A stretch of 64,000 nucleotides of DNA. It comes from Viridothelium virens (taxonomy: Eukaryota; Ascomycota; Dothideomycetes; Trypetheliales; Trypetheliaceae). The stretch covers positions 282,740-346,739 of the forward strand of contig ML991796.1 in the NCBI GenBank assembly GCA_010094025.1, in the 5' to 3' direction. The first letter of the stretch is position 1, and each line of letters opens with the position of its first letter. Positions 17,561-49,677 of this stretch are shown one piece after another. Both the position numbers and the translations under genes were made by a program. The notes under the pieces are model-generated. The model was not told the origin of the DNA and made no database searches. It worked only from the letters and a program-made list of their open reading frames with translations.

Positions 17561-17634
17561 AGGAGGTGCTGACGGATATTTGGATGGGGGTCTAAAGATG
17601 TCGCTGTTGAAATTATCTGGGGTTATGATACATA

Positions 17635-26700: not shown

Positions 26701-27615
26701 ATGTCAACCTCCAACCGTCCCATCGCAGCCGAAGGGTCCTTCAAAAATCGTACCGTTATCGTAAGCGGCGCCACAGGAAAGCTTGGCCGCCCTATTTGCG
26801 CGGCGCTCGCCGCTGCTGGCGCCAACGTTGTCATCAACGATGTCAAAGCGGACGCTGTGCAAGAACTTACTGACTCCCTCAAATCTGCCGGTCACACCGC
26901 TCTGCTGAGCATCACTCTCTCAGCGACATCTGGACCTGAAATCGTCGCAAAAGCATTGGAGCAATTTGGCCGCGTCGATGCAGTCATCAATCCCACACTA
27001 GGACCTATACCGTGGAAGCCGTTTGAGGACCTCACTGACGACGACTTCCGCGCGGCGTACGAGAACAATGTGCTGGGCCCCATCAGCGTCACGAAAGCAG
27101 CATGGCCACACTTCAAAAAGCAAGGGTACGGGCGAGTGGTGAACTTTACGTCAGACTCAATGCTTGGATTTCCAACTGCATCTGCATATACTAATACGAA
27201 AGGCGCGCTGTTCGGCATGAACAAGACGCTGGCGATGGAAGGCGCAGCGCACGGCATTAAAGTGAACTGCGTATCGCCAATCGCATATCATCCGAATATG
27301 GAACGGCATATTCTGCGTTTCTCCGATGACGTGCAACATGCATTCAAGACATTGTATCAGCCTGAAGCTAACGTCCCCATGATCTTAGCGCTGGTGAGTG
27401 AAGGATGCCAGGCGAGTGGTGAAGTATTCAATACAGCAGGCTGGGCAGCCGGCAGGAATGTTTGGGGGAATAAAAAAGGCGTCAATGGGTTGGAGACAGT
27501 GGATGCGTGTTTGAAGGCGCTGGGCCAGATTACGGAGAAGGGTGGAGACGTCTTTGAACCCCATACCATGGTTGATTTCACTGAGTGGCAGGGCAAATAT
27601 GTCCTGAACAAATGA
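26701..27615 (+). CDS. Short-chain dehydrogenase/reductase (hydroxyacyl-CoA-dehydrogenase-like)
   Basis: Single exon, 304 residues from the ATG at 26701, chosen because the Rossmann strand begins about 18 residues later. It has the cofactor motif VSGATGKLGRPI, the Asp-containing turn INDVKADA after the second strand (suggesting NAD preference), the N-helix region ENNVLGPI, catalytic Ser in NFTSDS, the Y-x3-K pair in YTNTK and KVNCVSPIA. This looks like the single-domain (3R)-hydroxyacyl-CoA dehydrogenase branch (MFE-2-like) of classical SDRs. The C-terminus (YVLNK) is not a peroxisomal PTS1. It is convergent with the MFS gene 219 bp away and may be the left edge of the P450-rich region. Substrate unknown. 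Confidence 0.9.
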   Translation: MSTSNRPIAAEGSFKNRTVIVSGATGKLGRPICAALAAAGANVVINDVKADAVQELTDSLKSAGHTALLSITLSATSGPEIVAKALEQFGRVDAVINPTLGPIPWKPFEDLTDDDFRAAYENNVLGPISVTKAAWPHFKKQGYGRVVNFTSDSMLGFPTASAYTNTKGALFGMNKTLAMEGAAHGIKVNCVSPIAYHPNMERHILRFSDDVQHAFKTLYQPEANVPMILALVSEGCQASGEVFNTAGWAAGRNVWGNKKGVNGLETVDACLKALGQITEKGGDVFEPHTMVDFTEWQGKYVLNK

Positions 27616-27834
27616 TCGCTCAAGGATGAGTGACGGGTTTACAAATTAAAAGACATGAATTGAACAATGAGAGTCTAGATTTAGAAGATGGTGTTATCTA
27701 GGACAAGACATTTAATGCATGAAGCGCTGTTTTCGACGACAAAAGTTTTGCCCATGATTCTATCATTATTCCACTTCGCGTACGTGATATCATGCAATTT
27801 CTTACGTTCTATCCAAAACTAAGACATCCGGTGG

Positions 27835-29594
27835 TTATGCAGCGTCCATATCTCGACTATTTTTCTCCTTCGGCTGAGACATACCGAATTCCGTCTCTAA
27901 CTCCGTGCGTAGAGTAACTTGTCTCTGCAAAAAGACTAATAGAAATGAAAATCCGGCAATGCCGATAGCGACCTGCCAGGTCAGTTTCAAGCTGTCCGTA
28001 TAGACGCTCACCACCTCTTCCCTGAGAGCAGATCCCTTTGCTAGATTTTTGATGAAGCTATTGGTACTTTGCTCGTAAGCTTGTCCACCGGAGAGCAGGT
28101 TTCTCGTTGCCGCGTCTGAAATTCTTCCAGACAGATGCGCGAATTGATTGTTGAATATCGCGGCGGATATAGTGATGCCCCAAATTGTTCCAAAACTACG
28201 CAGCACTGCCCAGGTTCCTGTCGCGGTTGCCGTGTCTTCTTCTGACAGTTCGGCCTGTGCAGCGGGTAGAAGAGTTCCAATTGCGAGTCCGGAGCCGGAG
28301 GCGAATATGATCTGGAAGATGACCCATTCTGCAGTAGATGATGTACTTGTCAACATGGTCATGAGACCAAAGCCCATGACCATGAGTGCAAAGCTGACTG
28401 CATGGATAGGAACGTACTTCCCCGTCTTCTCCATGGTGACACCACCCACAGCTGCGAAGGCCATAAGGCAGAGAACAGTAGGAAGAAGCTGAACACCTGA
28501 ACGAGTCGGAGAGGAACCGAGCACTGCTTGGAAGTACACCGGCATGAAGTAGATCTCCCAGTACAAAAACAAGGTGTGGAAAAAGGTCAATGCGAATGCT
28601 GCGGCAGATGTGCGATTTGCAAAGAGATGGGAGGGTAACGTCGGCTCTATGCAAAATCGAGACCGTTCAAAGAGCACAAAGAGCCCTATGCCCACGAACC
28701 CAAGTACCAATGGCACTATAATACGCCAAGAAGACCACGCGTATAGTGTTCCAGCATCGGTTAGGGCGATGAGCAGAGCAACCACAGCAGCAATAAAAAT
28801 CGCGTTCCCGAAGAAGTCTGTTCGCTTCAGCTTCTCCGCAAGAGTCAATTCTTTCTGCCACTGGACATGGAGGAAACCGATCAGCAGAATGAGTGCAACA
28901 AATCCCACTGGCAAGTTGATGTAGAAGACCCAGCGCCACGTTGTATTCGCAACTATAACACCACCAATGAATGGTCCAAGGGCCGTGCCGATGGTCGCCG
29001 CGCCGAAGATGTAGCTCATAACGCTCCCACGCTCCCGGAGGGGCACTAGGTCGCAGATGATGAGGTCGAGTAGCATTGCGCAGCCGCCTCCCCCTATGCC
29101 TTGAACAGTGCGGCCAGCAATGAGCATGGTCATGTCAGTGGCGCCTCCACTGATTCCGCTACCAAGAATGAACACTGCAACGGCGAAAATGACAAGCCAT
29201 CTACGACCAAATATGTTTGCTGTCTGTCCGTATAGAGGCTGAAATGCAGTACTGTATTTATCAGTAAACATTTGAAAGATTGGTGTGGAGGTGGTTTGCA
29301 TTGCACATACCTCGACAGAAAAAATGCATTGATGACCCACACGTATTCCCGTCCTCCACCAAGATCCCTAGTGATTGAGGGCAAAGCAGTTGAAATGACC
29401 GTCCCTTCAAGTGCCACAAGCGTGCTGGTTACACAAAGTGCTGTGATGATCAACGCATAACGCCATCCTCGAGTAGTTCTTTGTGGCTCTTTCTTTGGGC
29501 CTTCAACAGTAGCAACGAACCCGTTGTTACTGTCGACCGGAGAGTTCCAGCCTGCACCTTTTTGCTCTGAGCGTTGAGACCCCGATGCCGACAT
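27835..29594 (-). CDS. MFS transporter, DHA2 (14-TM) drug/metabolite exporter type
   Basis: Exons 29311-29594 and 27835-29251 (57-bp intron; the acceptor after AAATACAG is chosen because it restores AFQPLYGQ), 566 residues. After a roughly 45-residue polar N-terminus, TM1 (YALIITALCVTSTLVAL) leads into TVISTALPSI, the proton-antiporter pattern of DHA2 exporters. Motif A is FGRRW, with the DHA2 motif LGPFIGGVIV and then WRWVFYINLPVG. The C-terminal half holds further TM segments and ends in a basic/acidic tail. Such exporters commonly lie in fungal secondary-metabolite clusters and give efflux or self-protection; its position next to four P450s fits that, but the substrate cannot be read from sequence. 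Confidence 0.93.
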
Positions 29595-30574
29595 GTCAGT
29601 AATGAGACTTCAAGAATCCTCGCTTTCGAACGACGAATTCGTCGTTTTCTGCAGTGAGTTACGACATGAGAAACGAGACCATGAGAAAATAATTGAAATC
29701 ACAGACGCGTAGGCAGAACCGGGAAATCTCCAAAGTAAGCCAATAATAGCGCAGCATGATGCCCTTTGAACGGCAGACCTCCGCGATAGGTACGAACCCT
29801 TGCAGCGGCGGAGACATTTGCCAAAGACTGCATTTCAAGCGCGTGACAATCTGACCTGTTTCCAACTAAGGTTTGGAGCCTGCATTTGTTGTAATTCCCC
29901 ATGTCGGATATACAAGGTTCCTTGTCGACGCGGGAGGCAGTGTCGATTGAACATGGGTGGAGCATCGAGATGAATATAGCACCATAGCACGAAAATGATA
30001 TCAGAGCAGATGCCGGTTTTCACGCGGCCCCCAAGGCTACACAGGCTTAGGTAGGCAGAAGGGTGGCGTGGGTGGGAAGGCTGCACCGATGGTTGCCGTA
30101 GGGAGTTAGAAGGCCGCAGAGAGATGCCCATCCGGCGCGGGCCGTATAGGAAATCGCTGTACGCAGGTTCTGCTATAACAAGCTTTACACTATTTGAAAA
30201 CCATCGACCCGATGGCTTGTTGCATGACTCGCTTAGCGTAGCCACGTCCGCGAATCTAATGCAGGCGATGAGGATGCGGCTGAGATACGCCTGATGTCAC
30301 ACAAATCATCGATCCACTGAGCCTTTCCAATTTGGACCCTAGAACGGCTGTGGGTACAGCTTTGCTTGGAACGTGGCCATGCATGCTGGTACCTACTCAG
30401 CTAAGTCTCCGGATACCTTAGAGTCACTATCGTTGGGACGCAAACGCGAATCATCAACAGTGTAGAGGGGCACGAGAGCCTGTGCAGCGGACACGAGCGG
30501 GGATATTCTCTGCTAAGGTAAGAACGGATGCATAGACAATTACGGAATAGATGCTATGAACAAATTTGCTTTTT
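29595..30574. other. Intergenic; MFS promoter side
   Basis: No supported gene. It lies upstream of the MFS gene and downstream of P450-A. Minus-strand open frames at 29659-30245 show no family features. Confidence 0.45.
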
Positions 30575-32446
30575 TCAACCCCTCACACGCTTCTCCAACC
30601 GAACAAAGAAGTCCTGGTGGAAGGACACTCCGTTACATTGGTCAACCCAAGGCTTCATGGGATTGACCACCTCAATGTCAAAAGTTCGGAACAACTGCGC
30701 GAGTTAGTGAACTCTCCAAGGTCTCGTTCGCATGGACCAACTTACTTCAATCAATACCTTGTTGATGATCATCATTGCTTGCGTGACGCCCAAGCATTTC
30801 GTCCCTCCATAACCAAAGACTAATGCCTGCACCTTGTTCATCTCCATTAAACGCTTCTCATCGGCCTCGAGCCATCTCTCTGGTCGGTACACTTCTGGTT
30901 CATCACCAAAGCACGGGTGCCGCTGCAAACCCCACGCGTTTAGACCGATCTGCGTACCTGCAGGCACATAGCGTCCGTCCAGCGTATCGCCACCTGGCGG
31001 TGCAACACGTTCCCGCAATTGCGTAATGGGCGGGAAACGACGAAGAGCTTCCGACACACAGGCCTGGAAGTAGGGTAGCTTCATGGCCTGAGCGTTTGTG
31101 ATGGGGGTCGAAATCTCGCCTTTGGCGACCGCGGCGTCAAGTTCATTCCGAAGTCTCGAGAGGATAAGGGGGTTGGTGGCGACATGCAGAACGACGACGT
31201 TGATAGCTGCAGAGGAGGGAAATGCACCAGTGACACTGCATGTTCCGATTAGCACGATGTAACTGAGGCCGAACCCGAAAAAAAGAAAAGGCAGCTACTT
31301 ACAGTGCTATTGAAGTCTCGGTTTCTGCCTCATGCTGCGTGAGGCCACGCTTCATCCAGGAGCCTAGCATGTCGTTGACTGGCTTCGCATCTGGCGCGTA
31401 CCGCTTCTCAGTGACGATTCTTGAAACCTAGACAAAATTGTTTAGTTTAGATCACTCATAGCAATAGCACCGACGTACCTTCATGATCTTGCCGATTCCC
31501 GGATTGTTGTGCTCTGTTAGAACCATACGATTCTTCATTCCGGGGATCGAGCAGATTGTGTATATGAGAGAGAAAAGGCCATGTATCGTTGATAGATATT
31601 GGGCGTAAGGCGCATTCTCTTCAATACTCTTCTGGAATTCATCCCGCTCTTCTTCCTCGTAACCGAATCCCAGACCCTCGGAGAAGCAGACCCATGCTGC
31701 TATCTCGAGTGTCATCATTCGCACGTTTCTTGCGAGATCGTAACTTCTCGCAGAGGATGTTTTATCCACAGCCTTGAGCTGCATCTGTTCTATCCATTCC
31801 GATACTCGACTATCAACAACATTTTCTAGGTCTGGAAAATCCTTCGTAGCATACTAGAGGGGGTCGTATTAGTGACGACCAAATTCGTATCATTCGCAAT
31901 GTAATGGACTTGATCTTACTCCTTGAGTAACTTTCCACCTCAAGGCATCATGCTTTACTGGATCCGTTTCAGACGCGATACTGGTGTAATGCGGGTCAAA
32001 TCTTAACGAGTCGAACCATTTTCCGCGACGGTAATTAGAGTGAGGACCGAGCACACGCCAGTTGATCTCAGGATCATCCGTCAGAAGGGTATTGGGTCCG
32101 ATGCGCACAAGTTTACCTATTGAATATTGTAGTTAGAAACGGTCTGATACTTTGAACGAAGCCTTTGCAAAGGGTGATCTGAGATCCGAGAATCACTTTT
32201 TTTTTCCATTCAGGCTACATGCTTACCGAAATGTTTGTTCGCATCCAGAAATATATTGGCCGAGTCCTTGGAGGCGTAGGTCTTGATGAGCCAGTATCTT
32301 GTGTAGCCAGCGAGTTTGGGACCTGCAAAGTTCGACAGATGGAAGAAACGAATAAACACGCGACGAAAAATAGCATATACTAGCAATATGCCAAGGAATA
32401 ACCCAGCGTTGCGCAAAGTGATCAACTCTGTGCTGATGATAGCCAT
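30575..32446 (-). CDS. Cytochrome P450-A (pisatin-demethylase/CYP57-like group)
   Basis: Six exons: 32227-32446, 31920-32116, 31479-31853, 31303-31427, 30746-31235 and 30575-30694, giving 508 residues in one frame. All junctions have GT-AG and most have CTAAC-like branch sites. The N-terminal anchor is residues about 8-28. Substrate-recognition and core parts resemble the fungal pisatin demethylase/benzoate hydroxylase-like group (HFGKLVRIGPNTLL, FDSLRFDPHY). ExxR is in SEALRRFPP, PERW in YRPERWLE, and haem loop FGYGGTKCLG. The I-helix is unusual: TGAFPSSA where A-G-x-D/E-T-T is usual, so the acid-Thr pair for oxygen activation is missing, although a Ser could substitute. It shares a divergent 1-kb promoter region with P450-B. 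Substrate unknown. Confidence 0.9.
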
Positions 32447-33470
32447 GGCGATCCCCTTCTTTGCAGGACGTTTCACAAGAATAAAGCTCTGCTTCTGCTA
32501 TTGCTTGCCAAAGTTTTGATCCGAGAGGAAAACACCAAGACATCTGAATTTGCCGGGCAGTGCCTAGAGGGCGCAAAGCCACATCCACAGCAGCGACAGC
32601 AAAGGCCTGAGATCATTTCGCGCATGTGGTCCAATTCAGCCCTTGGCACCCACCAAATCAGAGATCCTCGTCGAATAGCATTCTTAGGGCTGCCAAAAGA
32701 GACAGACCCTGTCACGAACCAGCACCCAGCCTGCAAGGGGCTGGCTAAGTTGGATAACGAGTAGGCACCTATCATCATGGAAATCGAAGCTACTAGTCCC
32801 GAGTCCTGCAGCTCGGCGCCACTGACGGCGCGGAAGGATAAGGCTTGCAGCACCGTTAAGTCTGGAACAAAGATGGAAAACGTTATGGAACAGGGAAGGC
32901 ACCGGAACGCACAGCCCGTGTCTTAGGTCAGCGTTTTCATCTTCGACCCCGGTTTAATCACCAACAACTCTCAGCTCAGCTCTCCCCCACTAATGCCAAG
33001 ACTTCATTGTCCGGCACAGCATGGCGGCCCGTTGCAGCATCTAGAATGCTTGCCGCTGGGTGGCTGATTGCCCTCTCTGCACCGTCTGAACCGTATTGCG
33101 TATTGTTGGTGATACTTGTGCAGATTGCCGACGATCTCAGCCCGTCTCGGAGCTGACCTCTCGATTGGGAGCATGACTGCCATGCCTAAGATGCTCAGCA
33201 TTTTAGGCTCCTCAGAATGGCTTTTTTTGTACTTTGCGTGGGGCGGTGGAGCAGCGTTGAGATGAAGCGCCGTCTTTGTCGCAGTGTGACCGGGTAGAGA
33301 AAGCCGCTCAAATCGAAGAGTGCGACATCAATCTTGGACGCGCAAGCTTCTGCATTGCTTGAATCGGTAGGAAATCCTTTTCTGTAATCTTTGGACTGCG
33401 CGAAACGAGCACGGAATCTACATACCAGAGTCTACCCTGACAGTTTGCTCACGGCAGCTTAGCCGTCATC
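32447..33470. promoter_or_regulatory. Divergent promoter region of P450-A and P450-B
   Basis: About 1 kb between start codons at 32446 (minus) and 33471 (plus). No gene inside. Divergent P450 pairs in clusters are often co-regulated; I could not identify a specific Zn2Cys6 site by eye. Confidence 0.5.
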
Positions 33471-35067
33471 ATGATTGAGGATGTTTTACAAGTCGTCGAG
33501 CAATCGCCCAGAATCGTTTCATTGGGCGTGTTTCTCTCTCTAAGCGTGTTGTATTATTTTCTATTTGCTTCAAAGTCAAAACCTTTAGACGTCCCATCGT
33601 ACGATGGAAATGTGACACCGTATGGGGTTGAATTTCTTTCAACAATAGAGAAAGCTTCTGCAGAGGTAAGTGCGCACCATCTCAGATTTGATGTTTCTCA
33701 CAATAAGTCAGCATCCCGATAGCATCTTCAGGCTTAACACGGCGAATTACGATACCTTAGTGCTGCCTCCGAAATACATCGACGAGGTCAAAGCAGCACC
33801 CGAGGCGAAGTTCAGTATTGGTGCAGAATTGTATACTCGCAACCTCGGGAGGTATACTCTGATAGGGACGGTCGGTAGAGCTCATGGATTCGTCAATTCT
33901 ATCAGGCAGGATTTGAACCGAAACTTGGCGCTCACCTTTCCAACACTACAGGCGGAAACGGAGTATGCTACAGGTACAAGCATAGGGGACTGTCCGGAAT
34001 GGAAGCCTATTGCGGTGTACTCTGCAGCATTGCGCATGGTAGCTCTTCTCACAGGCAGGGTCTTTATCGGACCGCAGCTCAGTAGGAACGAAGAATGGAT
34101 CGGCGCATCCATCCAAACAACGGTCGACACCTTTTCCGGGTCTTTCAAGCTTTGGAATTATCACTGGTCTATCCGTCCAATCATGGCACGCTTGTTACCT
34201 GAGATTCAGAATATCCACAAGCAGAATAAACGGGTAGCTGAGCTTCTGGAGCCGGTGCTTGCAGAGCGTTTGAGACAAATGTCCCAGCCAGACTTCAAGC
34301 CCCCGGCTGACATGCTGCAATTTTTTCTTGACAATCTTGACGGCAAGGATGCTACATACCAAGCTGCTCTTCAGTCTGCCATAAATGTTGCCGCTATTCA
34401 CACGACCAGCATGAACATCACCCACGTCATATACGATCTCGCCGCAAATCCCGAGCACATCGAGCCTCTCCGCGCAGAATTAGAAGAAGTTATAAGCATG
34501 AACGGCGGCGTCTGGGACAAGAACAGCATTATCAAGCTCCGGAAGATGGATTCTTTCATTCGCGAATCACAGCGAATGAGCCCGCCTGGGATCGTCTCGA
34601 TGAGTCGAAGGGTACAGCAAGACGTAGTGCTTTCCGATGGCACAAAGCTACCAAAAGGAACATTAGTCGCTTGCGACTCGTGGTCTGCAACTCGCGACTC
34701 CAATCTATGGGAAAACCCGGAGGTTTTTGACGGGTTCCGGTTTGAGAAATTGCGCGCCATTCCAGGAAACGAGGCAAAATACCAATTTGTGACCAGCTCT
34801 CCAATCAATATGCGTAAGTAAACCCCATACATCAGCTTGCCTTGGTAAACTTTACTCACTCTTTTTGCTGAAGACTTCGGCCACGGTTCACACGCTTGTC
34901 CGGGACGATTTTTCGTCGCAAACGAGATCAAAATTCTGATGGCTCACCTCATCCAAAATTACGACATCGCGCTCAAGCCTGGATGTGAAAGACCGCAAAG
35001 TATGTACAATAACATCATGATCCTTCCGAATATGGAGGGAGAAGTTCTATTTCGCTCCAGAAGATAA
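33471..35067 (+). CDS. Cytochrome P450-B (ent-kaurene-oxidase-like clan)
   Basis: Exons 33471-33665, 33712-34813 and 34874-35067 (46-bp and 60-bp introns), 496 residues. The anchor is about residues 16-36. The body resembles fungal ent-kaurene oxidase-type P450s (CYP503/CYP68 neighbourhood): [17 protein letters not shown], the I-helix with [17 protein letters not shown], ExxR in RESQRMSPP, and the haem loop [15 protein letters not shown] restored across the last junction. In this group the HTT triad replaces the A-G-x-D-T-T form. Relatives hydroxylate terpenoids and indole-diterpenes, so a terpenoid substrate is plausible but unproven. It is convergent with P450-C, 297 bp away. Confidence 0.92.
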
Positions 35068-35364
35068 ATTGAAGAGACGTTTTGGTGGTTCAAGCGTTTA
35101 CTGGTTTCATCTGTGATCCTCCAAGTCTGGTTGTGAGGCGGAGTAAGGTGTTAATTGTGTGAGATTATGTAATGCATTTCATGTGCTTTTGGGCAACCGA
35201 GGCCGGGCTACATGCATCATCTGTATCTGTACTCCGTATACAAGCGAGATCGCGAGTTTTGTTCTTGATCGTAAAGAAACCAGCCAAATATATTACACGT
35301 TAATTGCTACCTCCTATCCTTACAAGATCAAGTTCAGCTGTCGTAGAAATCCATCATAGCATCC

Positions 35365-37237
35365 TTACGCCTTCGGGCGCAAAACCACATGCACATCCTC
35401 GCCTGGCTTTGGGTCCATTAGCCCCGTGGTAGGCTTCTCGTTGTTGAGTTCCGGAAATTTACGATTCCCTCCAAGCCCTACATCAAAGCGGTGCAACAAC
35501 AGCGTAATGAAAACGCCCACTTCTTGCCTTGCAATAAACCGCCCAGGGCAGTAGGAGATGCCGCCACCAAATGGTCGGTAACTTGGGCTGTGCGTAAGGT
35601 TCTTGTTCTTCACAAATCTCTCCGGATTGAAGGAATCGACATCCTGGCCAAAATACCTGCCATCGAAGTGCATTTGCCGGAAGGGAACGATTACTCTTGA
35701 GCCTTGCGGTAAAATCTTACCGCCGATTGTGATAGGTGAGGTAACAAGACGAATGGAAGAGGACGCACTACATAATCGTAGGGCCTCGTGGAAGACGCCA
35801 GCGAGATAGGGGCAGGAGTCCATTAAATAGGGTAGAGAGAGCGGAGCATCGGGATCTTCTGGCCGTAGTGCCGGCGCAGTCTCTTTACGGATGATGTCGA
35901 GGAGATCTGGGTTGTGGAGCATGTATGCCATCGTCCAAAAAAGAACTTTGTAGGTGTTTGTGTTGGTTCTGGAAAATGGAGAGTTAGTTCAGCCATAGAC
36001 ATGCAGTCGACCAGACGCATGACAAGTGCTTACACGAAGACTACCATGCAGAATATCTTTGCCAGATCTTCCTCGGATGTTCCAAGTGCGCGTTGCGTCT
36101 TCTCGAACGTCTCCACAATGAATGATGCACCTGGCCGTTCCGATTTGGGAAGAGCAAGATAGCGCTGAATGGTCTTTGACACACGATCTTTCGCGGCGTG
36201 CATATCGTCAGCCTTCGGCCATTTGTACCACAACTTCCAATTATCGTCGTCAAACTCGAGAAAGTACTTTGGAAGGTTAGGCTCGATCTCGAGAATCTTA
36301 TCCCCAAAGAAAGCACGTAGCGCAGCATCTAGGAGGACTTCCTGGACCCAGCCAAGAAGGGCAACAGTCTTTTCTCCTTTCTCGCCAGAGGACATCACAT
36401 AAGGGCCTTTGATATTGCCAGGTTGCAACCAGTCCGAGATATATTTAAGGAACTTCCCTTGAAGATTGTAGTACACCTCGCCTGGCACCAGCTGTTGCTT
36501 CCAAAAGTCGTTATTGAGCTGCGCTAAACTCTTCATACTGGGATTCTTGATATTCATCGTTCGACTTACGACATCGTCTGCTTCAGAAGTTGGACGACGG
36601 TAGACATTATCCATGGCTCCATGGGTAACGCCAAACATGATTGACAGTTCATAGACAATCTTGTCAAAGACAAGGGCCTGGGTACTCTTATAAAGCTCGG
36701 AGACATCTGGTGGAGAGGTCAAAAAGTACAACTTCTCTCCGCCAAGAGTCAAAGCAAATGGTTCACGAGTGTCCCCGAAATACTCCCTATGACAATTAGC
36801 GTCGGTGCCAGCCAAATGGTTCGGGAGGATCGCGGTAAATCCTACCGTCCTTTAGTGATGACTCCTTGTCCATTCTTCACATATTCAATTGCATGCCCTA
36901 GAAGCTTAATTAGTATAAGATCCACTATCCTACACCTTTCGTCTTTTCAAATGGTTGAAAAGCGAAAAGCCGCAACACATAATCGCACCTAGAACTGAAT
37001 AGGAATTAGTCATCATAAGTGAGCAGATGTCTCAATGACTCAAATCTTACCGGGTATCCAGTACGGTAATTCTTTTGGTTCATCAGGATGCAAAGCTGGC
37101 TTCACGGTAAACGCCCAGAGCCTCCAGACGCTGTACATAAAGCCAAAACCGGCAACAGTGAAGAGGAGGCCTTGAATTGCAGGATGGGCTCCGATGAGCG
37201 GATGGATAAAGGTACCATGAAGCCAATCGAACAGCAT
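35365..37237 (-). CDS. Cytochrome P450-C (CYP7/CYP8-like fungal group)
   Basis: Exons 37051-37237, 36846-36897 (52 bp), 36034-36786 and 35365-35968, giving 531 residues. The anchor is residues about 20-42. Core features are the I-helix VVFVTNTNTYKVLFW (N-T in place of acid-Thr, as in the CYP7/CYP8-like clan), ExxR in HEALRLCSA, PERF in FNPERFVK and the haem loop FGGGISYCPGRF. Similar P450s occur in fungal clusters making oxidised terpenoids or sterol-like compounds (inference). Intron 1 is unusually long (153 bp) and contains a second CTAG acceptor at 36989-36990; using it meets a stop within about 20 codons, so the longer intron is preferred. The small second exon restores GHAIEYVKNGQGV. Confidence 0.9.
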
Positions 37238-39264: not shown

Positions 39265-40932
39265 CTAAGCAGGCTCGGTATTGTGATCGCTGAAGCTTCT
39301 CCTTCGAATCATGAAGGTGGAACTCGGAATAGGTAGGACACTGGATCTCCATGTGAAACACCTCCTCGTCGGAGAAGCGTCGAGTTTGATATCATAGTTC
39401 TGAATAATCTCCACGAGAATGATTTTGATGATGTAGGCGGCGTAGAACCTCCCTGGGCAAGCTTGCTTCCCTAAGCCCCAAAGCGGGTAGAAGGGACTTG
39501 TGTCTGTGAATTTGGACTGCGCAACGCCATCAATCTTCGACAGTCGGGTCGCGTTTCTAATGAATCTTGTGCCATCAAAAACATGGGCGTTGGCGTAAAT
39601 GGAAGGGTCTCGCATAATGGCTCGTTGCGGGACGCACGCCCAGTCTCCAAGTGGAACGCTGGTACCATCTTTAAAATGATATGGTACCATAGCTTTCCTT
39701 CGAAGTGATACTATTGCTTCGTGAATAGGCTTTTCAAGAATAGATTAGGAGATTGGGCTGTAATAGAGAATGGGCTTACTGGACTCCGAAGCATTCATTC
39801 GAGCAGATTCTTTCAAGAAGCTGTCCAGGAGAAGCAAGCTGTTGATATCGATCGATCCAATTGAATTCACAGAATCATCAATTTCTTTTCTGAGCCTCTC
39901 GATGTATTCCGGGTATGTGCAAAGATCCACAAGAGCGTAAAAGATGGTCATAGCCGGTTGATGGACTCCTGCGAACCAAAGAGCCAGTGTCTGTTGGACC
40001 ATTCGCAGAGCTCTGTCTGGTGACTTATCCGGATAGAGCTTGACAATGTGCTGAATGTAGTCGCGTGGCGTTTCGCCTTTGGTGTTGCCATGCTCCTCGG
40101 CATCAAGTCTCTCCTTTATCACGGGTAAAAGTTTGGAGATCAAGTGTCTAGATGCTCTGTGATTCCTTGTAACAATGGATGACATGACTGGAGCAAAGAA
40201 CTTTGGCACGCAACGAAGCGCTTCTGCGGCAACAAAGACGTCCTGAGGATATTGCACAGCGGCATCAAGAAACGCAGCATCCCGTGTGAATTGCTCACCG
40301 TAGAACGTGTAAGTATTAGTCTTGGCAACTGCTTTCTGGGCGTAGCTGAATATGCTCAAAGTCACCCAGCCCTGATCAAGCTGTTTGCCCTTGAGCTCGT
40401 TCGTTAATGCCTGGCGTGCAAGAGCGGTAAGGGGATCTTGGTAAGAGGGTAGTCGTAGTGTCAATGATCGGAGGATTCGATGTTGTAGTCCAAGTCGATT
40501 CAACTCGATCCCGTTCATAGTATGAGCTGGCTGAAAGACCTGTCGATGTCAGTATGCCACCGCTGATCTGTGATGTATGAAACAAACTTCTTCTGCGGTC
40601 GCCACCAAGGACAGTTGATCTTCTTTAGCTTGGCTCAGCTCCAATATGGAGGCCTCTGAAGATACTAAAGTGTATTTCCTCTCCGGTGTCTGGATAGTAA
40701 AAGAAACTCCTGGGACCTGACGATCCGTTATTAGCTTGGCATGACATACGAAATGTGAACAAATCAAGCTTACATATTTTTCTGCCAAGAGTTTTGGTCC
40801 TGTGAAGAGCCATCTTGCACTTTCTTGCCATTGACTCAAGTGGCTAATGGAATAAAATAAAATGTATACGAGACAGACAGAGACAGCCAGAAAGATTCTT
40901 TCAGGGTTTAGCAAGAGAGCTAGAAGTGCCAT
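39265..40932 (-). CDS. Cytochrome P450-D (terpenoid-oxidase-like clan, HQP I-helix)
   Basis: Exons 40774-40932, 40588-40716, 39780-40539 and 39265-39710, giving 497 residues. The start at 40932 gives a hydrophobic anchor (residues about 10-30). Body features: I-helix LWFAGVHQPAMTIFYALVDLC, ExxR in KESARMNAS, and haem loop WGLGKQACPGRFYA (W replaces the usual F). The I-helix has His-Gln-Pro where the acid-Thr pair normally lies; this variant recurs in the same fungal clan as P450-B. For the last intron two in-frame acceptors two codons apart are possible; the distal one gives SESISLRRK, closest to relatives. Paralogous to P450-B in overall pattern. Divergent from the rhodopsin-type gene. Confidence 0.88.
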
Positions 40933-42192
40933 CTTACATAAAAAATATTGAGCATGGAGAATATCGGAAGACACGAATTTGCCTGTGGCAGTATTTATTC
41001 AGACAGCATTAGGCAGATAAGTTTATACTCACGTGTAAATTTAGAGATTCAGGGGTCTTGTAGGGCCAGGCTTGTCAACCAGTACCTGAGCGACTCCCTA
41101 GCCGGCCGTCGACTCACAGTCCAGATGCCCATGAGGCTGTGGGCCGTTGAACTCGTACTTACTCAGAGGCTTCAACCACGCGGGAAGGGCCATGATGGAG
41201 ATATTGCCCTGTTGGGCTGGAGTAGCATAGCCAGGACTCCGTAAGATCTACTTAGCATAGAAATGCGAGAGCACAAACCTGCCGTCAAAGGCACGAATCA
41301 ACGATAGTCAAGACTGTTTCGTTTCGTCCACTAATCGGCCCTGCGTTGTTGGTGGCTGAGGCGTATCTTGGTGAGCATGATGGAAATGGGATGCTGACCG
41401 GAAGGGTTGAGTTTGACATGCATCCATGCCATATCCCATGTCGCATATCCATGCTCGTAGATCTCTCGGGTAAAGCGGCGCCGAAAGTCGCAGATAGAGT
41501 AATCGTTATCACCATTTCCACCCACGCCACCCTAGCGCGCCGAATGGCTTCATCATGATACTCAAATTATTGATGTAGAGCACGTGGTTACTTAACCTCG
41601 AAATAGACACTGCAGCGAAAGTGCAGGTGTTGGTTGGGAGATGAACGCGAAACCTTCTTCTGGGGTCCGGCAAGGCAGATCCCATGCGCGAGCCGGCCGA
41701 TGATGTATGCGATTGAGGACTTCTGGCGCTCTACTCCAGTTTGGTGATAGTCGAATTGCGCAAGAAAATTCGTTAACCTCGATAGACCGGTAATGCGGCG
41801 TGAATCCTCCCACTGCACGACTTTCGTCCTTCTCTCCCACGACCCCTCCATCGCATACACGCACGGCTGAACGAGTACCCTGTACGTGCAGAAGCGTGTA
41901 CAGACTAGTTAAGGACGTCAGCATCTAGCCCAGATACGGATTGCGAACCATCAGCCTTATTCGGCTGGCATGCTCTCATTGGACAATTTTCTACAGCATT
42001 TGCATTGGATGGGCCGAGAGCTGATGCATTCTGTAAGGATTTTAGTCTTACATGCGGAGCTGGCAGGATATGTCTGGCTGGGGAAAGGCAACAACCTCCC
42101 ACTTTCTCACTTCTCCTTCAGGCGGCTACCAAACTCGTCGTTCTGAGACTGTTGTGTGACCTGAAATTCGTACGGTAACTGTTGTCAGCAAA
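40933..42192. promoter_or_regulatory. Divergent intergenic region, P450-D / rhodopsin-type gene
   Basis: About 1.26 kb with no supported gene; it must contain both promoters. Overlapping short open frames on both strands (41285-41924) have no recognisable family. Confidence 0.45.
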
Positions 42193-43598
42193 ATGGATCC
42201 TACGAAGCTGTCGCCGGAGATGCTGGAGAACTATCCAGCTATGAAGCCTCCACCAGGAAAGACAACAGACCTTCACAATCCTGGCAAAGATGGATCGAAT
42301 GCGACTCAAACGATCATCGTCACAGCGGTTCTTACAGGTGTTACCGTGTTCGTCCTCCTTTTACGTCTCTGGACAAAGCTATTGGTTGTACGTTCACCTG
42401 GATGGGACGATTGTAAGTTCTTTTCTCAATGTGGCTGTACGCTCTATTGCTGACCTGCTCTAGACACAAGCATTGGTGCTACGGTATTCCTGAAATTCCC
42501 TTTACACTTTAGGAGGGTTCTCATTTTCGATAGGTTGGCGCAGTCGCTTACGCCTCACTGATCATCTATGGTGTGTACATCGAGTTTCTTGCCTTTGGAA
42601 CTCTTGCTCCAGCACCTGGGAATTTACTGACAAGTCACAGTCTTCTCGCACGGTTTTGGATACCACGAGTGGAACGTTCCATTAGGGACGCTCGTTGACT
42701 TGACTGATGTAAGAGTCATTCTGACCTTTGCTCAGGCAATGTCTGCTAACCATGGCATAGTACTTGAATGCCATCACATACATTTACAAGCCGTTCATGC
42801 TGCTTGCAAAACTTTCTCTTTGCATATTCTTCCTCAATATCTTCGGCAGCAAGCGAGGGATGCGATGGGGAATCTACTTCGCCATCGCATACAATGTGAT
42901 CTTACAAGTCACGGCTTTCTTCTTGGCCATCTTTCTTTGCCTTCCTGGGCGACCATCATTTTGGACATGTTCTAACAAGATATCGGTCCTGAACGTCGTC
43001 ACAAGTGGATTCAATGCATTCATTGACGTCTACCTTTTGATCCTGCCCCTGATTGGTATTGCGCAGCTTCAATTGCATCAGAGGCGCAAAGTGATGCTGT
43101 GTCTAGTTTTCTTCACAGGACTTCTGTTAGTTACCATCATTTAATTTTGCCAACACTCTTCGTGGGTACTAACAAATTACAGTGCCGTCGTGTCGAGTAT
43201 CCTCGGAATTGCATACCGAGTGAAGCAGAACAGTACCAAAGACACCTCATGGGCCTTCGCACCGGAAATCATTCTAGTGTAAGTTTCCCAACCGCACGCC
43301 AAGTCACGCATTCTCTAATCGCTACAGAACGTTCGAGCTGGAAGCTACAATCATGGTTGGATGCTTCCCAACCCTACCCGCACTCTTCAAATCCAACCAT
43401 CCGCTCAGCTTAAGCTCTTTGTGGTCCCGGCTCGAGTCAAATAGTTCTCATCTTTTCAGATCAAGCATTCGGAAGTCATCGAACAGGTCCCAAGGCTCTA
43501 GCACGAAACCAACAATCCAAGAACACACGCATTGGGCCAAGCAATCTCTGGATTCTACAGAGGTTCAGCTGGTACCCGTCCATGGCTCGCAGGTCTGA
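42193..43598 (+). CDS. Seven-TM fungal rhodopsin-type (Pth11-like) membrane protein
   Basis: Seven exons: 42193-42412, 42464-42483 (20 bp), 42534-42570 (37 bp), 42641-42708, 42761-43125, 43183-43278 and 43328-43598, giving 358 residues. Each junction has GT-AG with a nearby CTAAC/CTGAC-like branch site. The topology is seven hydrophobic segments with an extracellular N-terminus and a polar, Ser-rich cytoplasmic tail. Family features are LLLRLWTKLLVVRSPGWDDYTSIGA after TM1, the GFGYHEW loop, and the Y-L-N/Y-K-P segment before TM3 with paired Cys (CLPG, FWTCS). This is the fungal rhodopsin-type integral membrane family that includes Pth11-like receptors. Ligand and role are unknown. No CFEM domain is present. 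Its place between P450-D and the regulator is unusual but such genes do occur in clusters. Confidence 0.85.
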
Positions 43599-46265
43599 GG
43601 CCTATCACCGCTTGTTGAAGCTTACGTTATAAGCCCTGCATGATCTCAACTTGATGAAATTGCTCCCAAGCTATAGGTGCTAGGAGAGCAAGCTGCTGCA
43701 GTTTCGATAAGCACTTAATTACCGAGCCAGAGTCTTAAAAGCTTTCAGGAATGGTCCGAATGCTATTAGCTTTCTTCCGGTATCTCACACAGGGCCGCTA
43801 ACATTGGTTAGGTTCACAGTTGAAAATGCTTTTGATGGCTGGTGAATCACGACTGGGCGAATTTTGGTAGCGTGGCATTCGTTTCCAGCCAGACATTGCT
43901 AGCTATGACTAATCTAAAATAATTTCACGAAGTATATACCGAGTCCTCAATTCTCACCTTTTCGTCAGTATATGGCCTACAAAGGAAACGCCAAAATATC
44001 TCACAGAGAGATCCAGAAGCCACAAAGGTCACCCAAACCTCAATCTGATACACTGAAAATGCTACTAGTCTCGACATTCTAGTCCAGACTCAAAGCCAAA
44101 CTCAACACAGCCCAAACAGCCGGAGAAGCTGCACCACTGACTTCAATTGGTACATTCTTGGCTTGGGCTCGCATTCTATATTTTGGTTCAGAAAGATTGC
44201 AACATCCGCGTGCGGTCCTCATCTGCTCAAGGACTAAGACTTTTCATTTGAAATTGGGGCCATATTGTGGACTTCGACATTGTCGCTCACTAGAAAACAG
44301 ATCGGCTCTTGACAACATTCGCAATGCGATCCTTACAGTTTTGATTAACAGGAAACAAGGCCCAGGTTGAGCGTAGGTTCTCTTGACTTCTGTCCTTTTG
44401 CCGACTTCTCAAGATCGTTCAAAAGAGCCTCAAACTGGAAAGAAGCTCAGGAAATCTATGCTCTTCAAATAGCTGGTAAGTAACTTCCTAAGTTGACTCA
44501 CCAATGTCTCGTGTCATCCAAGCAGCCGTTCAAGTAGAAATTGCGGACTGTAGATCCAGCTCTCAAGAGTCAGAGTTCTTACAATCAAAGACTAAATTAA
44601 GCACATCCGAGGTTTGAGAAGACGGTTCATTTGGATAGAGTATCAAGCAAGTCGATAAGTGACGCGAAGGAAGCCCCAGAGCTCATAAGGCGAGTCTCTG
44701 GACGTACTGCGAGGTCTTAAAGACGACTAGGACAACTGAACGGATCAGATTTTATGAGTGCCAGGCTGACCAGTAGTTGGAAGTTATATGAACAACTTGA
44801 GCTCCATTCTTCACACAAATGCGGACTTCATTTTAGATCGATTTAAGTATTCAAACGGGACATGGCGCTCTAAAGCTCGGCAGACAGGCAATGCAACCAC
44901 TGTGTGTACGACCGTCGCTCCAAGAGAACCGCTAGACAGATTTCCGAGTGCAAGAAGCCGAGCTTCAAAGTACTTAAGTTGGACAGGCTCTTGCAAGTCA
45001 TCAGATTCGCCCTTGTCATAGAAGATATTTCCCTTTACTGAAATTGAAAGATAGTCCAATAGTGAAGACGCGACCCTCCGTTACGGACAAGTTGCTTTGG
45101 GGGTATTGAGCGCCGATGGTAGCAAACAATGTTACTGAGTACAAGTGCGAGACTATCGAGCTCTGACACAAGTGATGCCAGAATGGTAGCATCCAGACGA
45201 GGATGAAATGACACACAAAGAACAAAGACGGGAAGCACACACACGAGAGAGAGGGCGGTCCGCAAAGATTTAGAGACAGTGATGGCAACAGGCCCAGCCC
45301 GACTGACCTGATGTACTACTGCATTTGCATACCCCGCTCCTTTCCATGCATTGTAGCATTGTTTTGCACTCTGCGGTGTGAAACTTCGCTTCCACTGCGA
45401 TCCATTCTACCCCTTGTTGATATTCATCACTTGTTTATGTAGCTACGAGGAGCTTCCTTGACCTATACTATTATAAATGCCAGGCGTTTATCTGTACGAC
45501 ACACCCACTCTTCTCTTTCATAGCTCCGTCGGCGAAGGATTGGAGAAATGTTCTCTATAAGTCTAATGAGGGTACATGAGAGGAGGACGACTGGCAGTGA
45601 GCCTTTGCGAAGATCCATTGCTTGTGGGTGACCCATTCGTTTGCAACGAGCACAGGTTTGGGAAGATTGTAGCTGGAAGAGAGCCGGCAACGCCTGTTCA
45701 GTACGTCAGTTTTCGTGGGAATTGGGAGGCATGAACTACGCCTCTGTCAATCGAGAGTCCATTGAAACAGCGAAAAGTTGATTAGCCAGACAAGAGCCAT
45801 TGGTAATGCGCAAAAGTCTTCAGAACACGTCAACCCCTAGCCAGCTAATATGCGCTGATTTCGAATTACGTAAAGGATATTTCGGGATGTCGCTCTTCTA
45901 ATCGTATGGTGATGGAGTACTCAGGCTTCTGATAGACTTCTTCATTGATCCCGTTTCTCACAGGTCGCTGCCAGATCTCAATAGATACCCTTTGAGAAAA
46001 TCTGAGGCTGCAATATTCGGTGAGCTTTGCTTACATAATCAATGACATGAAGACTCTCAGGGTCCAGCAGGGTTCATTTCTATTTGAGGAGCCCGAGCCA
46101 CTCGGCGACTAGGCAAGCCTCAGCCGCTCTTATGTAACCGGTTCACCGTCAGGCCAGATGCAAGATGGATTTCGTCTTTTGTGATTTCCGTTTGACCTTC
46201 GTTCCTTGCAACCTAATAGGAATGCCGCTTATTATCCAGAAGGGCCCTGCGTATGAGCAACCCAA
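43599..46265. other. Intergenic, 2.7 kb
   Basis: The longest empty interval of the cluster, upstream of the regulator gene. No coding region, RNA gene or element is recognisable. The open frame starting at 46165 that overlaps the TF start is a different frame. Confidence 0.45.
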
Positions 46266-47641
46266 ATGGTGGCGCAACAAGGGCGACGAAAGCGGCACTC
46301 GAACTCGCGGAAAGGCTGTGGCAACTGCAAGTTGCGACATGTCAAGGTATGCCTTGGATGATAGTTTCGATAGCTTTCAACAAGCATACTGAACGATCTC
46401 ATAGTGTGATGAGACAAGGCCAGGCTGCTTGAAATGCCGCAATAATGGACTGTTGTGTAGCTATGCAAGCAACGTGGCCGAGCTCTCGAGCTCACACGAA
46501 CAAGAAGTCCCACAAACCACTTCGATCTGCTCCACCAATCAAGTTATCATGGATCATTTGAACAACATTATCGCTTCGGCTTCGGATAAGGGAGCTTCTG
46601 TGGGCAAGATCTTCCAGTTGGACTTACCGGACCTGGAGCGCTTGTCGCGATTCCAAAATAGGACATTGACCTCATCGGGGCTGACAATAGCTGGTCGTGT
46701 TTTCCAAAAAGAAGCATTGAGATTAATGACCACCGTAAGTCCACTTTCTAGATCTGAGCTACGGTTTTAATGTTGCGGTCCAGAACCAACATCTCTTGCA
46801 CATTGCAATGACGGTAACCGCAATGCACGATCGCTATCTTGCGCACGAGGCTCATAGGGAACGTACACCACTAGAAAGTTACCATTGGAGTATGGCCTTG
46901 CAGTATCTAAATCAGGACCTCTCATTCAATATTCAGAGTTCCAACCTTGACGCGATCTGGATGACAGCCGCGTTCATATGCTGGGCCAGCTTGTTCGCCA
47001 TCGAAACGGACGATCCCGAGCAAGTGTGGCCTTTAAGGCCTGCCACACCTGCCGATCTTACCTGGCTTGAGATGCAAAAAGGCTTGCGAACTCTATGGCC
47101 GATGGTCGATTTCGAACGGTCCGGTAGTGTATTCCAAGGAGCGACAGAACCCTTCAGTGAGCGCTGTCTAGGCATACAATTACCCAGTGAGGGTATTGGC
47201 GGTGTTCTTCCACCTCTCGTTGCCTTATGTGCTCTCGAGCAGACCTCGAACGATAGCAATAATCCATATCACACCGCTGCACACATGCTATCTATACTCA
47301 TCCAAGACGATGTGAGCTGTACGAAAACCCTTCGTTTCTTGGCATTCCCAAATACGATGCAGTCTGCCTTCGAGGCGCTACTTCGGCTGAAAGATCCATG
47401 TGCTCTGGTGATGATGGCTCTATGGTATGAACTGATAGAACAGTCCACCTGGTGGATGTCTGGAAGGGCATCCTTAGAGCACAGAGCAATATGGATCTAC
47501 CTCAATCGATATCACGCAGATGATTCTCGAATAAAGGCTTTCATCGCGAGCTCGACTTCTACCTGGGGAGCTCCCACAGCTACCGACATAAAGCATCTGG
47601 GCAGCGATTATCGAGCACTCTGGTGGCGTTACCAAATTTAG
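46266..47641 (+). CDS. Zn2Cys6 transcription factor (Upc2-like architecture)
   Basis: Exons 46266-46346, 46405-46734 and 46784-47641, giving 422 residues. The start at 46266 opens a short basic arm (GRRKRHSNSRKG), then the binuclear cluster C18-x2-C21-x6-C28-x6-C35-x2-C38-x6-C45, split by the first intron after Lys27. A short linker and an all-helical regulatory domain follow (HIAMTVTAMHDRYLA, WMTAAFICWASLFAI), the layout of sterol-uptake-control/Upc2-like fungal regulators. It sits at the edge of the P450 region and is a natural candidate for its pathway-specific regulator (inference from position). Target sites are unknown. Confidence 0.92.
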
Positions 47642-48222
47642 CTGTCGCCATAAAGCTTCAGCACTACTCTGGGCACGCCTCACATTTCATTACCAATTGT
47701 ATTTTCCTCGGTTTCATTTTGTCACAGTCTACATATACCCCTAGACACATCAACCACCACTCGCTTAGCACAGGAGTACCCATGTGTCCTCACAGCCAAA
47801 TACCAATGAATTATTGAACACTAGCAGCCACAGACCAGCAAGGAGGCTGTGTGGTGGAATGAAAAAGGCTCCTAGGTGCGAAACTTAACGCTGTAAAACA
47901 TGTAGCGTATTTCCATGACAGCGATCTTTAAATAGCCTTAAATTGGTTTCTTATGAGCAATCAAATACACTGTACCTTGATCAGTAGTGTGGAATGCTGT
48001 CAATACTCCTCCAGAAACTGGTCAAATTTCGATGCATGATCTAGTACCTTTTGGCGTGAGGCAATGTTGCACGTTGAGTCAAGAATTAATCACATTATTG
48101 AGTGAAAGAGGTAACTTTAATCAGTCGGCGTTCTTCAATGATGTTGCCTGAAGATTATCTGCAGATAATGTTCTATCATCCAGCAACTTTTATCTAAACC
48201 AGTACGGCCTTAGACTCAACTT
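47642..48222. other. Intergenic between convergent TF and NmrA-like genes
   Basis: 581 bp, AT-rich; nothing coding recognised. Confidence 0.5.
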
Positions 48223-49248
48223 TTACCAAGCTGGCTTCTTGGACCTCTCAATCGCAATCGCCGTGTACTCATCCAAATCCTCCTTCGGTAAGCCAAGAAG
48301 ACCGTTCGAGAGGCCTTTAGTGTTCTCAATGTTGCCACTGCCATCGGGGAAGAAGACTCTGGAGTAGAGGATCTTGGCGAAGGCAGTCTGGTCTCCCGTC
48401 TGCAACGCCTGCATGCCGGCGGCATACCGCTGGTGGCTCGACTCCTTCTCAATCTTCCAGTCTGACTCCTTCGTCTTGGTGACCCGCAGAACGGAGTCCA
48501 GCATGTCCCTTTGGCTGATGGTGAATGAGTTGGTGTAGATGTACTTGTTCTTGTATTGCTCAAGGTTGGGGCTGTTGTCGCTCGCTCCATCAGGCGCGAC
48601 CTTGAGACTCAAGAGGCTGGCGACGGCGCGTCCGACCTGTGGCCATGTTGAGGTCTGGATCTTCGTGGTGCCTTCGTCGAACAGTGTCACGGTCTTGTCT
48701 TTGAAGTCGAAGCCGTAGGCAGCGGGGATGGCGAGACTGTACTCGTACCAGAAGCCTGTCGACACGGAAATGAAGTTGCTCTTTCCCACTTTGAGGATGT
48801 GTTGTTTGGTGGCTTGGATCTTGTCGCCAACGAGGGTTTCCTTGCTCAGGGACTCATTGTCCATGTCCGGAGACCAGACGTTAGGGAGGATCCAAGGAAC
48901 ACCTGCCGCTGCGGCGGCATCGACTAGCTTGGGCTCCGCATCCAATGCCATGACGCCCAAGGTAATGACTAAGGCGTCTTGTCCCTGAAGCGCCGAGACT
49001 AGCGAAGATTGATCATTGTAGTCCACCTTTTTTGACTCGACTCCTGCGGGAAGTTGACTGGAACTGTCGCCTCGGGTGATGGCAGTGACCTTATGCTTTC
49101 CGGATTTAAGGAGGGCTTCCGTAATGTATGTGCCGACGTTTCCACCAGCCTAAGTTTGATTGTCAGCGGTGGTCAATGACTGGGGGGTAAGGTTTCGTTC
49201 ACGTACTCCAACAACGGCAACTTTTTCGATTCGGTTGTTAGAAACCAT
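48223..49248 (-). CDS. NmrA-like / atypical SDR NAD(P)-binding protein
   Basis: Exons 49207-49248 and 48223-49149 (57-bp intron GTACGT...TTAG), 322 residues from the ATG at 49248. The Rossmann motif VAVVGAGGNVGTYI crosses the junction. The family's VDYNDQSSLVSALQGQDALVITLG region and LPNVWSPDMDN follow, as in NmrA/isoflavone-reductase-like proteins; some act as NADP-dependent oxidoreductases, others as redox sensors. No catalytic Tyr-Lys pair is evident. A second ATG at 49344 would add 32 residues rich in Arg, Ser and Thr and free of acids, like a mitochondrial presequence. The TATA box at 49383-49390 lies only about 40 bp before that ATG, so the internal start looks more likely. Possible cluster member. 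Confidence 0.87.
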
Positions 49249-49382
49249 CTTGGAAATCGTAGAAGAGAAGTTGTATTTCGGTACTAGAGGTTGGAAGTAT
49301 CTCGGACGAGTTGTTGTACGGAGAGGTCTGAGGAGAGAAAGCATGCAAGGAGAAGCTCGTCATCCGGTATATGGAGCTTGCT

Positions 49383-49390
49383 TTTATACA
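49383..49390 (-). promoter_or_regulatory. TATA-like box of NmrA-like gene
   Basis: TATAAAAG on the minus strand, about 135 bp before the ATG at 49248 and about 40 bp before the ATG at 49344. Confidence 0.5.
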
Positions 49391-49655
49391 TGCTCTTGAC
49401 CAGAGAGTCGGTGTCCGACGGTACCGGTCGATGGCGGCTTCTGGAGCTTGAATTGCTCCGCATGTTAGATGATCTCCCCAGTTTACGGTTGCAAACACTG
49501 CGGTATCCTTTGTGGATAGCTACTAAAGGGTCCAAGCACATGCTGGTATTACGACGTGGAGTTAGCCCGTTGCCTATATGGGAGTAGATTTCCAATTCAG
49601 CCAATCATCGAGCTCAACGGGGAATGTATTAGCTAAGCTCCGCCCTTTCCCACGA

Positions 49656-49677
49656 TGCCCCACTACTGCCCCACTAC
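49656..49677. repeat. 11-bp tandem duplication
   Basis: TGCCCCACTAC occurs twice in direct tandem. No coding context. Confidence 0.75.

What the first reader, a model, noticed from the sequence alone, without database searches (positions are those of the whole stretch)
26701..49248. P450-rich accessory cluster with no scaffold enzyme in view
Within about 22.5 kb lie an SDR, a 14-TM exporter, four P450s of three different kinds, a seven-TM receptor-like protein, a Zn2Cys6 regulator and an NmrA-like protein, and no polyketide, peptide or terpene scaffold gene. Two P450s (B, D) resemble the ent-kaurene-oxidase-type clan and one (C) the CYP7/CYP8-like group, which together suggest oxidation of a terpenoid or sterol-like substrate. 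This layout could be a tailoring cluster acting on a scaffold made elsewhere.
Basis: partly seen in the sequence, partly recalled or inferred. Interest (0 to 1): 0.75.

Follow-up and report, generated by a model that had tools for sequence, protein, structure and literature searches.

The report
Fungal P450-rich cluster lacking scaffold enzyme
This stretch of a fungal chromosome holds nine neighbouring genes, four of them oxidising P450 enzymes, that look like a small pathway for modifying a ready-made, sterol- or terpene-like molecule; such sets without their own scaffold-making gene are already known in fungi, so this is a plausible new example of a known kind.

Summary
Spliced gene models place nine genes exactly across 26701-49248: SDR, MFS exporter, P450s A-D, a fungal-rhodopsin-domain protein, a Zn2Cys6 regulator and an NmrA-like protein. 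Pfam scans of the nine genes and their main gaps show no polyketide, peptide or terpene scaffold gene. All four P450s keep the haem cysteine and ExxR. C's best solved matches include CYP8B1, prostacyclin synthase and CYP7A1, but CYP17A2 ranks first. B and D are relatives. The SDR is closest to (3R)-hydroxyacyl-CoA / 17-beta-hydroxysteroid dehydrogenases.

'Tailoring cluster on a scaffold made elsewhere' is plausible, with a direct precedent: the scaffold-free demethoxyviridin cluster with six P450s (PMC5943271). It is not proven. Substrate, co-expression and synteny could not be tested; no shared promoter word beats chance, and one CGG-repeat spacing found in 5 of 7 promoters fails after correction for the patterns tried. 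A host-compound catabolic cluster is a live rival. One oddity: none of the four P450s has the I-helix acid, and A and D also lack the threonine.

The parts
26701..27615 (+). SDR, single exon, 304 aa; stand-alone relative of the dehydrogenase domain of multifunctional enzyme type 2 (Fox2 / 17-beta-HSD4); no hydratase domain, C-terminus YVLNK is not an SKL-like signal
   Evidence: best solved match 2et6 ((3R)-hydroxyacyl-CoA dehydrogenase, best domain i-E 9.5e-30), then 1gz6 (17-beta-HSD4) 9.5e-29; YxxxK present
27835..29594 (-). MFS exporter, DHA2-like, 566 aa, one intron
   Evidence: MFS_1 1.5e-39; TIGR00711 2.2e-50 (below that model's cut-off)
30575..32446 (-). P450 A; haem FGYGGTKCLG, EALR; I-helix VTGAFPSS (acid and threonine both replaced)
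   Evidence: end set by hand at the stop after LEKRVRG
33471..35067 (+). P450 B, 496 aa, two introns; haem [15 protein letters not shown]-helix VAAIHTTS
35365..37237 (-). P450 C, 533 aa, CYP7/CYP8-like by several of its best solved matches; haem FGGGISYCPG, EALR; I-helix FVTNTNTY
   Evidence: CYP17A2 1.7e-18, CYP8B1 1.5e-17, CYP2R1 2.4e-16, prostacyclin synthase 2.3e-15, CYP7A1 1.8e-14. The N-terminal splicing is model-based (a 6-base exon is doubtful)
39265..40932 (-). P450 D, 516 aa, relative of B; haem WGLGKQACPG, ESAR; I-helix FAGVHQPA (acid and threonine both replaced)
42193..43598 (+). Seven-TM-type protein with fungal rhodopsin domain (PF20684), 358 aa, seven exons in the model
46266..47641 (+). 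Zn2Cys6 regulator, 378 aa; cluster CGNCKLRHVKCDETRPGCLKCRNNGLLC, split by an intron
   Evidence: (Zn_clus 2.8e-8)
48223..49248 (-). NmrA-like NAD(P)-binding protein, 322 aa; membership of the cluster doubtful (GC3 0.69)

Best explanation
A regulated accessory oxidation cluster in a filamentous fungus. The Zn2Cys6 protein switches on the neighbouring genes. The P450s and the SDR hydroxylate, desaturate or otherwise oxidise, and then dehydrogenate, a hydrophobic polycyclic substrate that the cluster does not make. The MFS protein exports the product. The most likely substrate is a product of the fungus's own sterol pathway or a terpenoid cyclised at another locus, as in the furanosteroid pathway. 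Shown here: gene content, intact P450 core motifs, no recognisable scaffold gene in the scanned parts. Inferred: co-regulation, order of steps, substrate class, export.
For: Four P450s of three kinds within nine genes; several of P450 C's best solved matches work on sterols, bile acids or prostanoids; the SDR is nearest to (3R)-hydroxyacyl-CoA / 17-beta-hydroxysteroid dehydrogenases; exporter and Zn2Cys6 regulator within the set; no scaffold gene seen in the scanned parts. Precedent: the vid cluster, 19 genes, six P450s, one labelled by homology 25-hydroxycholesterol 7-alpha-hydroxylase, sterol-derived; its authors looked for P450 clusters because lanosterol-derived compounds do not follow the clustering rule (PMC5943271, abstract and passages). 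In a study of 101 Dothideomycete genomes, 53 cluster families had no signature gene (PMC7530617, passages).
Against: No shared promoter word above chance (7-, 8- and 9-letter words in at least 5, 4 and 3 of seven promoters numbered 3, 1 and 3 against Markov means of 4.6, 1.4 and 2.9), and the best CGG-repeat spacing fails after correction. Substrate cannot be read from distant matches; A, B and D match many families about equally, and C's top match is CYP17A2, not CYP7/8. The vid cluster also has a Baeyer-Villiger monooxygenase, an esterase and other enzymes absent here. No synteny, expression or whole-genome test was possible.
Confidence: 0.45

Rival explanations
1. Catabolic or detoxifying cluster: the same enzymes attack a plant-made terpenoid, sterol or phenolic, the MFS protein expels it, and the Zn2Cys6 protein responds to the compound.
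For: Such clusters need no scaffold gene. A 30-gene Grosmannia clavigera cluster responds to terpenes and may metabolise them (PMC3680317, passages). [quoted passage not shown] The SDR resembles beta-oxidation dehydrogenases. The C-terminus of P450 A recalls pisatin-demethylase-like P450s (recalled, no call).
Against: No hydrolase, ligase, ring-cleaving enzyme or flavin monooxygenase is among the nine genes, which a degradation route would usually need; the SDR lacks a hydratase domain and an SKL-like signal.
Confidence: 0.3
2. Not one unit: two or three independent accessory genes or small groups lying side by side (for example SDR-MFS, the P450s, Zn2Cys6/NmrA).
For: NmrA has a different third-position GC (0.69); gaps of 2.0 and 2.7 kb lie between C and D and between the 7TM gene and the regulator; no promoter motif survives correction.
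Against: Four P450s in nine genes is far from chance under an assumed 1% background; oxidases, an exporter and a regulator together are the usual make-up of metabolic clusters. CGGN6CGG lies in 5 of 7 cluster promoters against 1 of 9 flanking ones, a weak hint of shared control.
Confidence: 0.17
3. Remnant of a once complete biosynthetic cluster whose scaffold gene was lost or lies outside the window.
For: The right flank carries a UstYa-like sequence broken by stops and a second UstYa-like gene, signs of secondary-metabolism genes coming and going. Fusicoccane clusters have four P450s and an nmrA-like gene beside the synthase (PMC5006380, passages).
Against: All four P450s have their core motifs; no fragment of a scaffold gene was found in the scanned gaps; no dioxygenase or O-methyltransferase as in fusicoccane clusters.
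Confidence: 0.08

Closest known systems
Demethoxyviridin (vid) furanosteroid cluster of Nodulisporium (PMC5943271, passages and Table 1 as shown)
   Same: No scaffold gene; several P450s including one labelled 7-alpha-hydroxylase; SDR-type dehydrogenases; MFS transporter
   Different: 19 genes, six P450s, Baeyer-Villiger monooxygenase, esterase, Bet v1-like and other proteins; no Zn2Cys6 or rhodopsin-domain gene in its table. Its sequences could not be compared here
Fusicoccane / brassicicene-type clusters of Mycosphaerella fijiensis and Alternaria brassicicola (PMC5006380, passages)
   Same: Four shared P450s (a fifth in A. brassicicola) and an nmrA-like gene; a short-chain dehydrogenase in A. 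brassicicola
   Different: They contain the fusicoccadiene synthase, a dioxygenase and an O-methyltransferase, all absent here
Terpene-responsive cluster of Grosmannia clavigera (PMC3680317, passages)
   Same: Clustered genes acting on a ready-made terpenoid
   Different: 30 genes, induced by host terpenes; composition not compared here
Signature-gene-free cluster families of Dothideomycetes (PMC7530617, passages)
   Same: Co-occurring accessory genes without PKS, NRPS, terpene cyclase or DMAT
   Different: Defined by co-occurrence across genomes, which could not be tested here

Membership tests
Scaffold-free fungal accessory metabolic cluster | Adjacent tailoring enzymes, transporter and regulator | tested here: met
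Scaffold-free fungal accessory metabolic cluster | No PKS, NRPS, terpene cyclase, prenyltransferase or other scaffold gene within or beside it | tested here: met
   holds for the scanned parts only. Pfam would miss an undescribed scaffold enzyme, and the raw-frame scan missed one known intron-split domain
Scaffold-free fungal accessory metabolic cluster | Co-expression or conserved co-occurrence in relatives | not testable with these tools
   no genome held, no fungal collection
Furanosteroid (vid-type) cluster | Sterol 7-alpha-hydroxylase-like P450 | tested here: inconclusive
Furanosteroid (vid-type) cluster | Baeyer-Villiger monooxygenase plus esterase for side-chain cleavage | tested here: not met
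   none among the nine genes or scanned gaps
Fusicoccane cluster | Fusicoccadiene synthase, dioxygenase, O-methyltransferase | tested here: not met
Fungal RiPP (UstYa-type) cluster | UstYa oxidase within the cluster and a repeat-bearing precursor peptide | tested here: not met
   two UstYa-like sequences lie outside, near 54 and 63 kb; a screen for exact 5-residue repeats showed no precursor-like peptide; a precursor with a single core would escape it
CYP7/CYP8 clan (P450 C) | Closest to CYP7A1, CYP8A1, CYP8B1; Asn in place of the I-helix acid | tested here: inconclusive
   all three are among the best matches and align over longer stretches, and the Asn is present, but CYP17A2 scores highest; that Asn is a clan trait is recalled
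Ent-kaurene-oxidase-type / CYP68 clan (P450 B, D) | Sequence relation to fungal CYP68/CYP503 | not testable with these tools
   no such reference sequences at hand; B and D are related to each other

The most novel reading that the evidence does not exclude
An undescribed fungal pathway that remodels ergosterol or a precursor with an unusual set of P450s. None of the four has the usual I-helix acid, and two (A with Phe-Pro, D with His-Gln-Pro) also lack the oxygen-activating threonine. These may therefore do substrate-assisted or non-hydroxylating chemistry (rearrangement, C-C cleavage, ring closure) to give a new steroid class.
Probability: 0.12. Interest if true: 0.6.

Novelty: new member of a known kind. 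Interest (0 to 1): 0.33.

Why it matters
Genome-mining methods that start from a scaffold gene pass over clusters without one, so each well-described one adds a testable lead to hidden sterol, terpenoid or detoxification chemistry. Here nine genes and one regulator give a compact target. The P450s with altered I-helices are candidates for unusual reactions.

Tried and rejected
Hidden scaffold gene in the gaps: not found in raw-frame Pfam scans with stops written as X. Not scanned in raw frames: 1-19900, the gene bodies 26750-29590, 30400-32440 and 33480-37000, the minus strand of 46300-47600, 50500-52600, 55400-58600, the minus strand of 58600-61500, 61500-62300, and one of six frames of 62300-64000. 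Of the 13 models outside the cluster, 9 were given to Pfam as proteins; models 7 and 8 were covered only by raw frames, and models 1 and 2 not at all. RiPP precursor: the 5-residue repeat screen listed six open frames, five of them with a single word seen twice and the sixth an ankyrin protein; tandem-repeat search gave four short arrays. RIP damage: TA/AT 0.54-0.81 and (CA+TG)/(AC+GT) 1.15-1.34 across the window, without a peak in the cluster that stands out. Shared promoter motif: the one 8-letter word in 4 of 7 promoters is expected by chance; CGGN6CGG stands in 5 of 7 cluster promoters and 1 of 9 flanking ones, rare for that pattern alone (3 of 500 shuffles) but not after counting all 39 patterns (107 of 500): kept as a lead only. 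UPC2-type regulator: the solved-structure search gave matches mainly to Zn2Cys6 DNA-binding domains, GAL4 and HAP1 first, so this remembered resemblance stays untested. Viral and bacterial relatives: one 34-residue viral-contig match to C and 19 bacterial loci for B at 22-34% identity, uninformative for function. Structure prediction was not run: the P450s are spliced products and no fungal relatives were available for an alignment. Literature: 10 searches; two searches returned nothing, nothing specific to this gene set. Six papers were opened, by passages only. I make no claim that this cluster is unpublished, since the species is unknown.
Full report
Observation. The window is from a filamentous fungus: genes with short introns, a Zn2Cys6 gene, a fungal rhodopsin domain, RPA1 and Sas10/Utp3 genes. 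No whole genome is held for it. A gene finder trained on the window's own open frames gave 22 models. P450 A and D, the Zn2Cys6 gene and the 7TM gene were re-spliced by hand-guided modelling. The Zn2Cys6 motif is cut by an intron and appears only after re-splicing: one search gave no family, one search gave Zn_clus 2.8e-8.

Is a scaffold gene missing? Pfam on the proteins shows none among the nine cluster genes or among 9 of the 13 other models; models 7 and 8 were covered only by raw frames, and models 1 and 2 were not searched. Six-frame scans of 37000-46300, of 29590-30400 and 32440-33480 and of 47600-50500 found only P450 D, the 7TM and NmrA, with two sub-cut-off matches (Pro-rich_19, EGF_4). 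To the left, 19900-26750 is empty in all six frames. To the right, 52600-55400 and parts of 58600-64000 show two UstYa-like sequences, the sedolisin activation domain and an aminotransferase piece. Two limits: the raw-frame scan missed the known, intron-split Zn2Cys6 domain, so a small multi-exon gene could be missed, and an undescribed scaffold enzyme would escape Pfam. The longest unexplained stop-to-stop frames in the gaps of the cluster are about 150 codons, with no Pfam match above cut-off.

The P450s. B and D are relatives (30% over 401 aa, E 2.8e-38); the five other pairs among A-D are E 2e-9 or weaker, so three kinds is right. In an alignment of the four, a fifth window P450 and 17 bacterial relatives, the haem cysteine is present in 22 of 22. 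ExxR and the haem loop are intact in A-D. At the I-helix acid-threonine pair, 18 of 18 others (17 bacterial plus the window's own P450 at 297-1454) have Asp or Glu followed by Thr. The cluster enzymes have Phe-Pro (A), His-Thr (B), Asn-Thr (C) and His-Gln (D). Asn is typical of CYP7/CYP8 and His of a fungal clan (both recalled), so B and C may be normal for their kind; A and D, without the threonine, are unusual. The bacterial set was found with B as query, so it is not a sample of fungal P450s. C's best solved matches are CYP17A2, CYP8B1, CYP2R1, a CYP17A1, prostacyclin synthase and, a little lower, CYP7A1. B's are sugiol and ferruginol synthases, then CYP51 and others; A's are ferruginol and sugiol synthases and CYP3A4, nearly level; D's best is CYP51, then ferruginol synthase. 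None of this fixes a substrate.

The SDR. Its best solved match is 2et6, a (3R)-hydroxyacyl-CoA dehydrogenase (yeast Fox2 type; organism recalled): whole-chain E 6.3e-59 over two duplicated domains, best single-domain i-E 9.5e-30. Next come two 17-beta-HSD4 chains. It stands alone, with no hydratase part, and its C-terminus (YVLNK) is not an SKL-like signal. Such an enzyme could oxidise a hydroxyl on a steroid or on a shortened side chain (inference).

One unit? Four P450s in nine genes is improbable by chance under an assumed 1% background. A/B and D/7TM are divergent pairs sharing intergenic DNA. Promoter words are not enriched. A direct CGG repeat with 6-base spacing occurs in 5 of 7 cluster promoters (SDR, A/B, C, D/7TM, NmrA) and 1 of 9 flanking ones; 3 of 500 shuffles reach 5 for that pattern, but 107 of 500 reach 5 for some pattern among the 39 tried, so it is only a lead. 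NmrA differs in GC3 (0.69 against 0.49-0.57 for the other eight), although left-flank genes reach 0.67-0.73, and it does have the CGG repeat. The core is probably 26701-47641, with NmrA optional.

Function. Two readings fit. In the tailoring reading, the cluster modifies a scaffold made elsewhere, with vid as the direct precedent: its authors searched for P450 clusters because lanosterol-derived compounds do not follow the clustering rule (PMC5943271, abstract and passages). In the catabolic reading, it handles a host compound (PMC8120277 and PMC3680317, passages). I favour the first (0.45 to 0.30) because degradative enzymes other than P450s and the SDR are missing and because of the sterol-type relatives of C and the SDR, but the margin is small. 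Work on Aspergillus ustus reports that deleting any of five gene clusters changes ophiobolin yield (PMC4895135, passages), so one terpenoid can depend on several loci. A study of 101 Dothideomycete genomes reports 53 co-occurrence families without a signature gene (PMC7530617, passages), so the lack of a scaffold gene is not rare.

Verdict. It is a new member of a known kind, with substrate open. Overall interest is modest; the altered I-helices of A and D are the part most worth a bench test.

Noticed in passing
window about 54036-54467, minus strand: UstYa-like (PF11807, E 4e-14) sequence with stop codons in its reading frame; looks like a relic, though an intron cannot be excluded for one of the stops. 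Left as found.
   Followed up: partly
window about 63256-63643, minus strand: Second UstYa-like gene, matched in two frames (3.7e-7 and 4e-11), consistent with an intron; near the window edge.
   Followed up: partly
window 297-1454, plus strand: Fifth P450 with canonical I-helix AGRDTT; the N-terminal part is missing from the model, possibly in exons before 297 or beyond the window edge.
   Followed up: partly
window 7687-11146, plus strand: NACHT/NPHP3-N plus ankyrin-repeat protein (fungal NLR-like); next to it a patatin-like phospholipase gene at 12566-14591.
   Followed up: partly
window 50361-52709, minus strand: Protease-like gene with a pro-kumamolisin activation domain (sedolisin type) directly right of the cluster.
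   Followed up: no
window 61427-62419, plus strand: Class I/II aminotransferase (2.5e-18), with a weak further piece near 61098-61289 (0.0093, below cut-off), so the model probably lacks its first exons.
   Followed up: no
window 55342-57162, plus strand: 585-aa protein with hydrophobic stretches and no Pfam match at 0.01.
   Followed up: no
cluster promoters: about 26460, 33082, 37585, 41467, 49415, 49758: Direct CGG repeats with 6-base spacing in 5 of 7 cluster promoters; not significant after correction for the patterns tried.
   Followed up: partly
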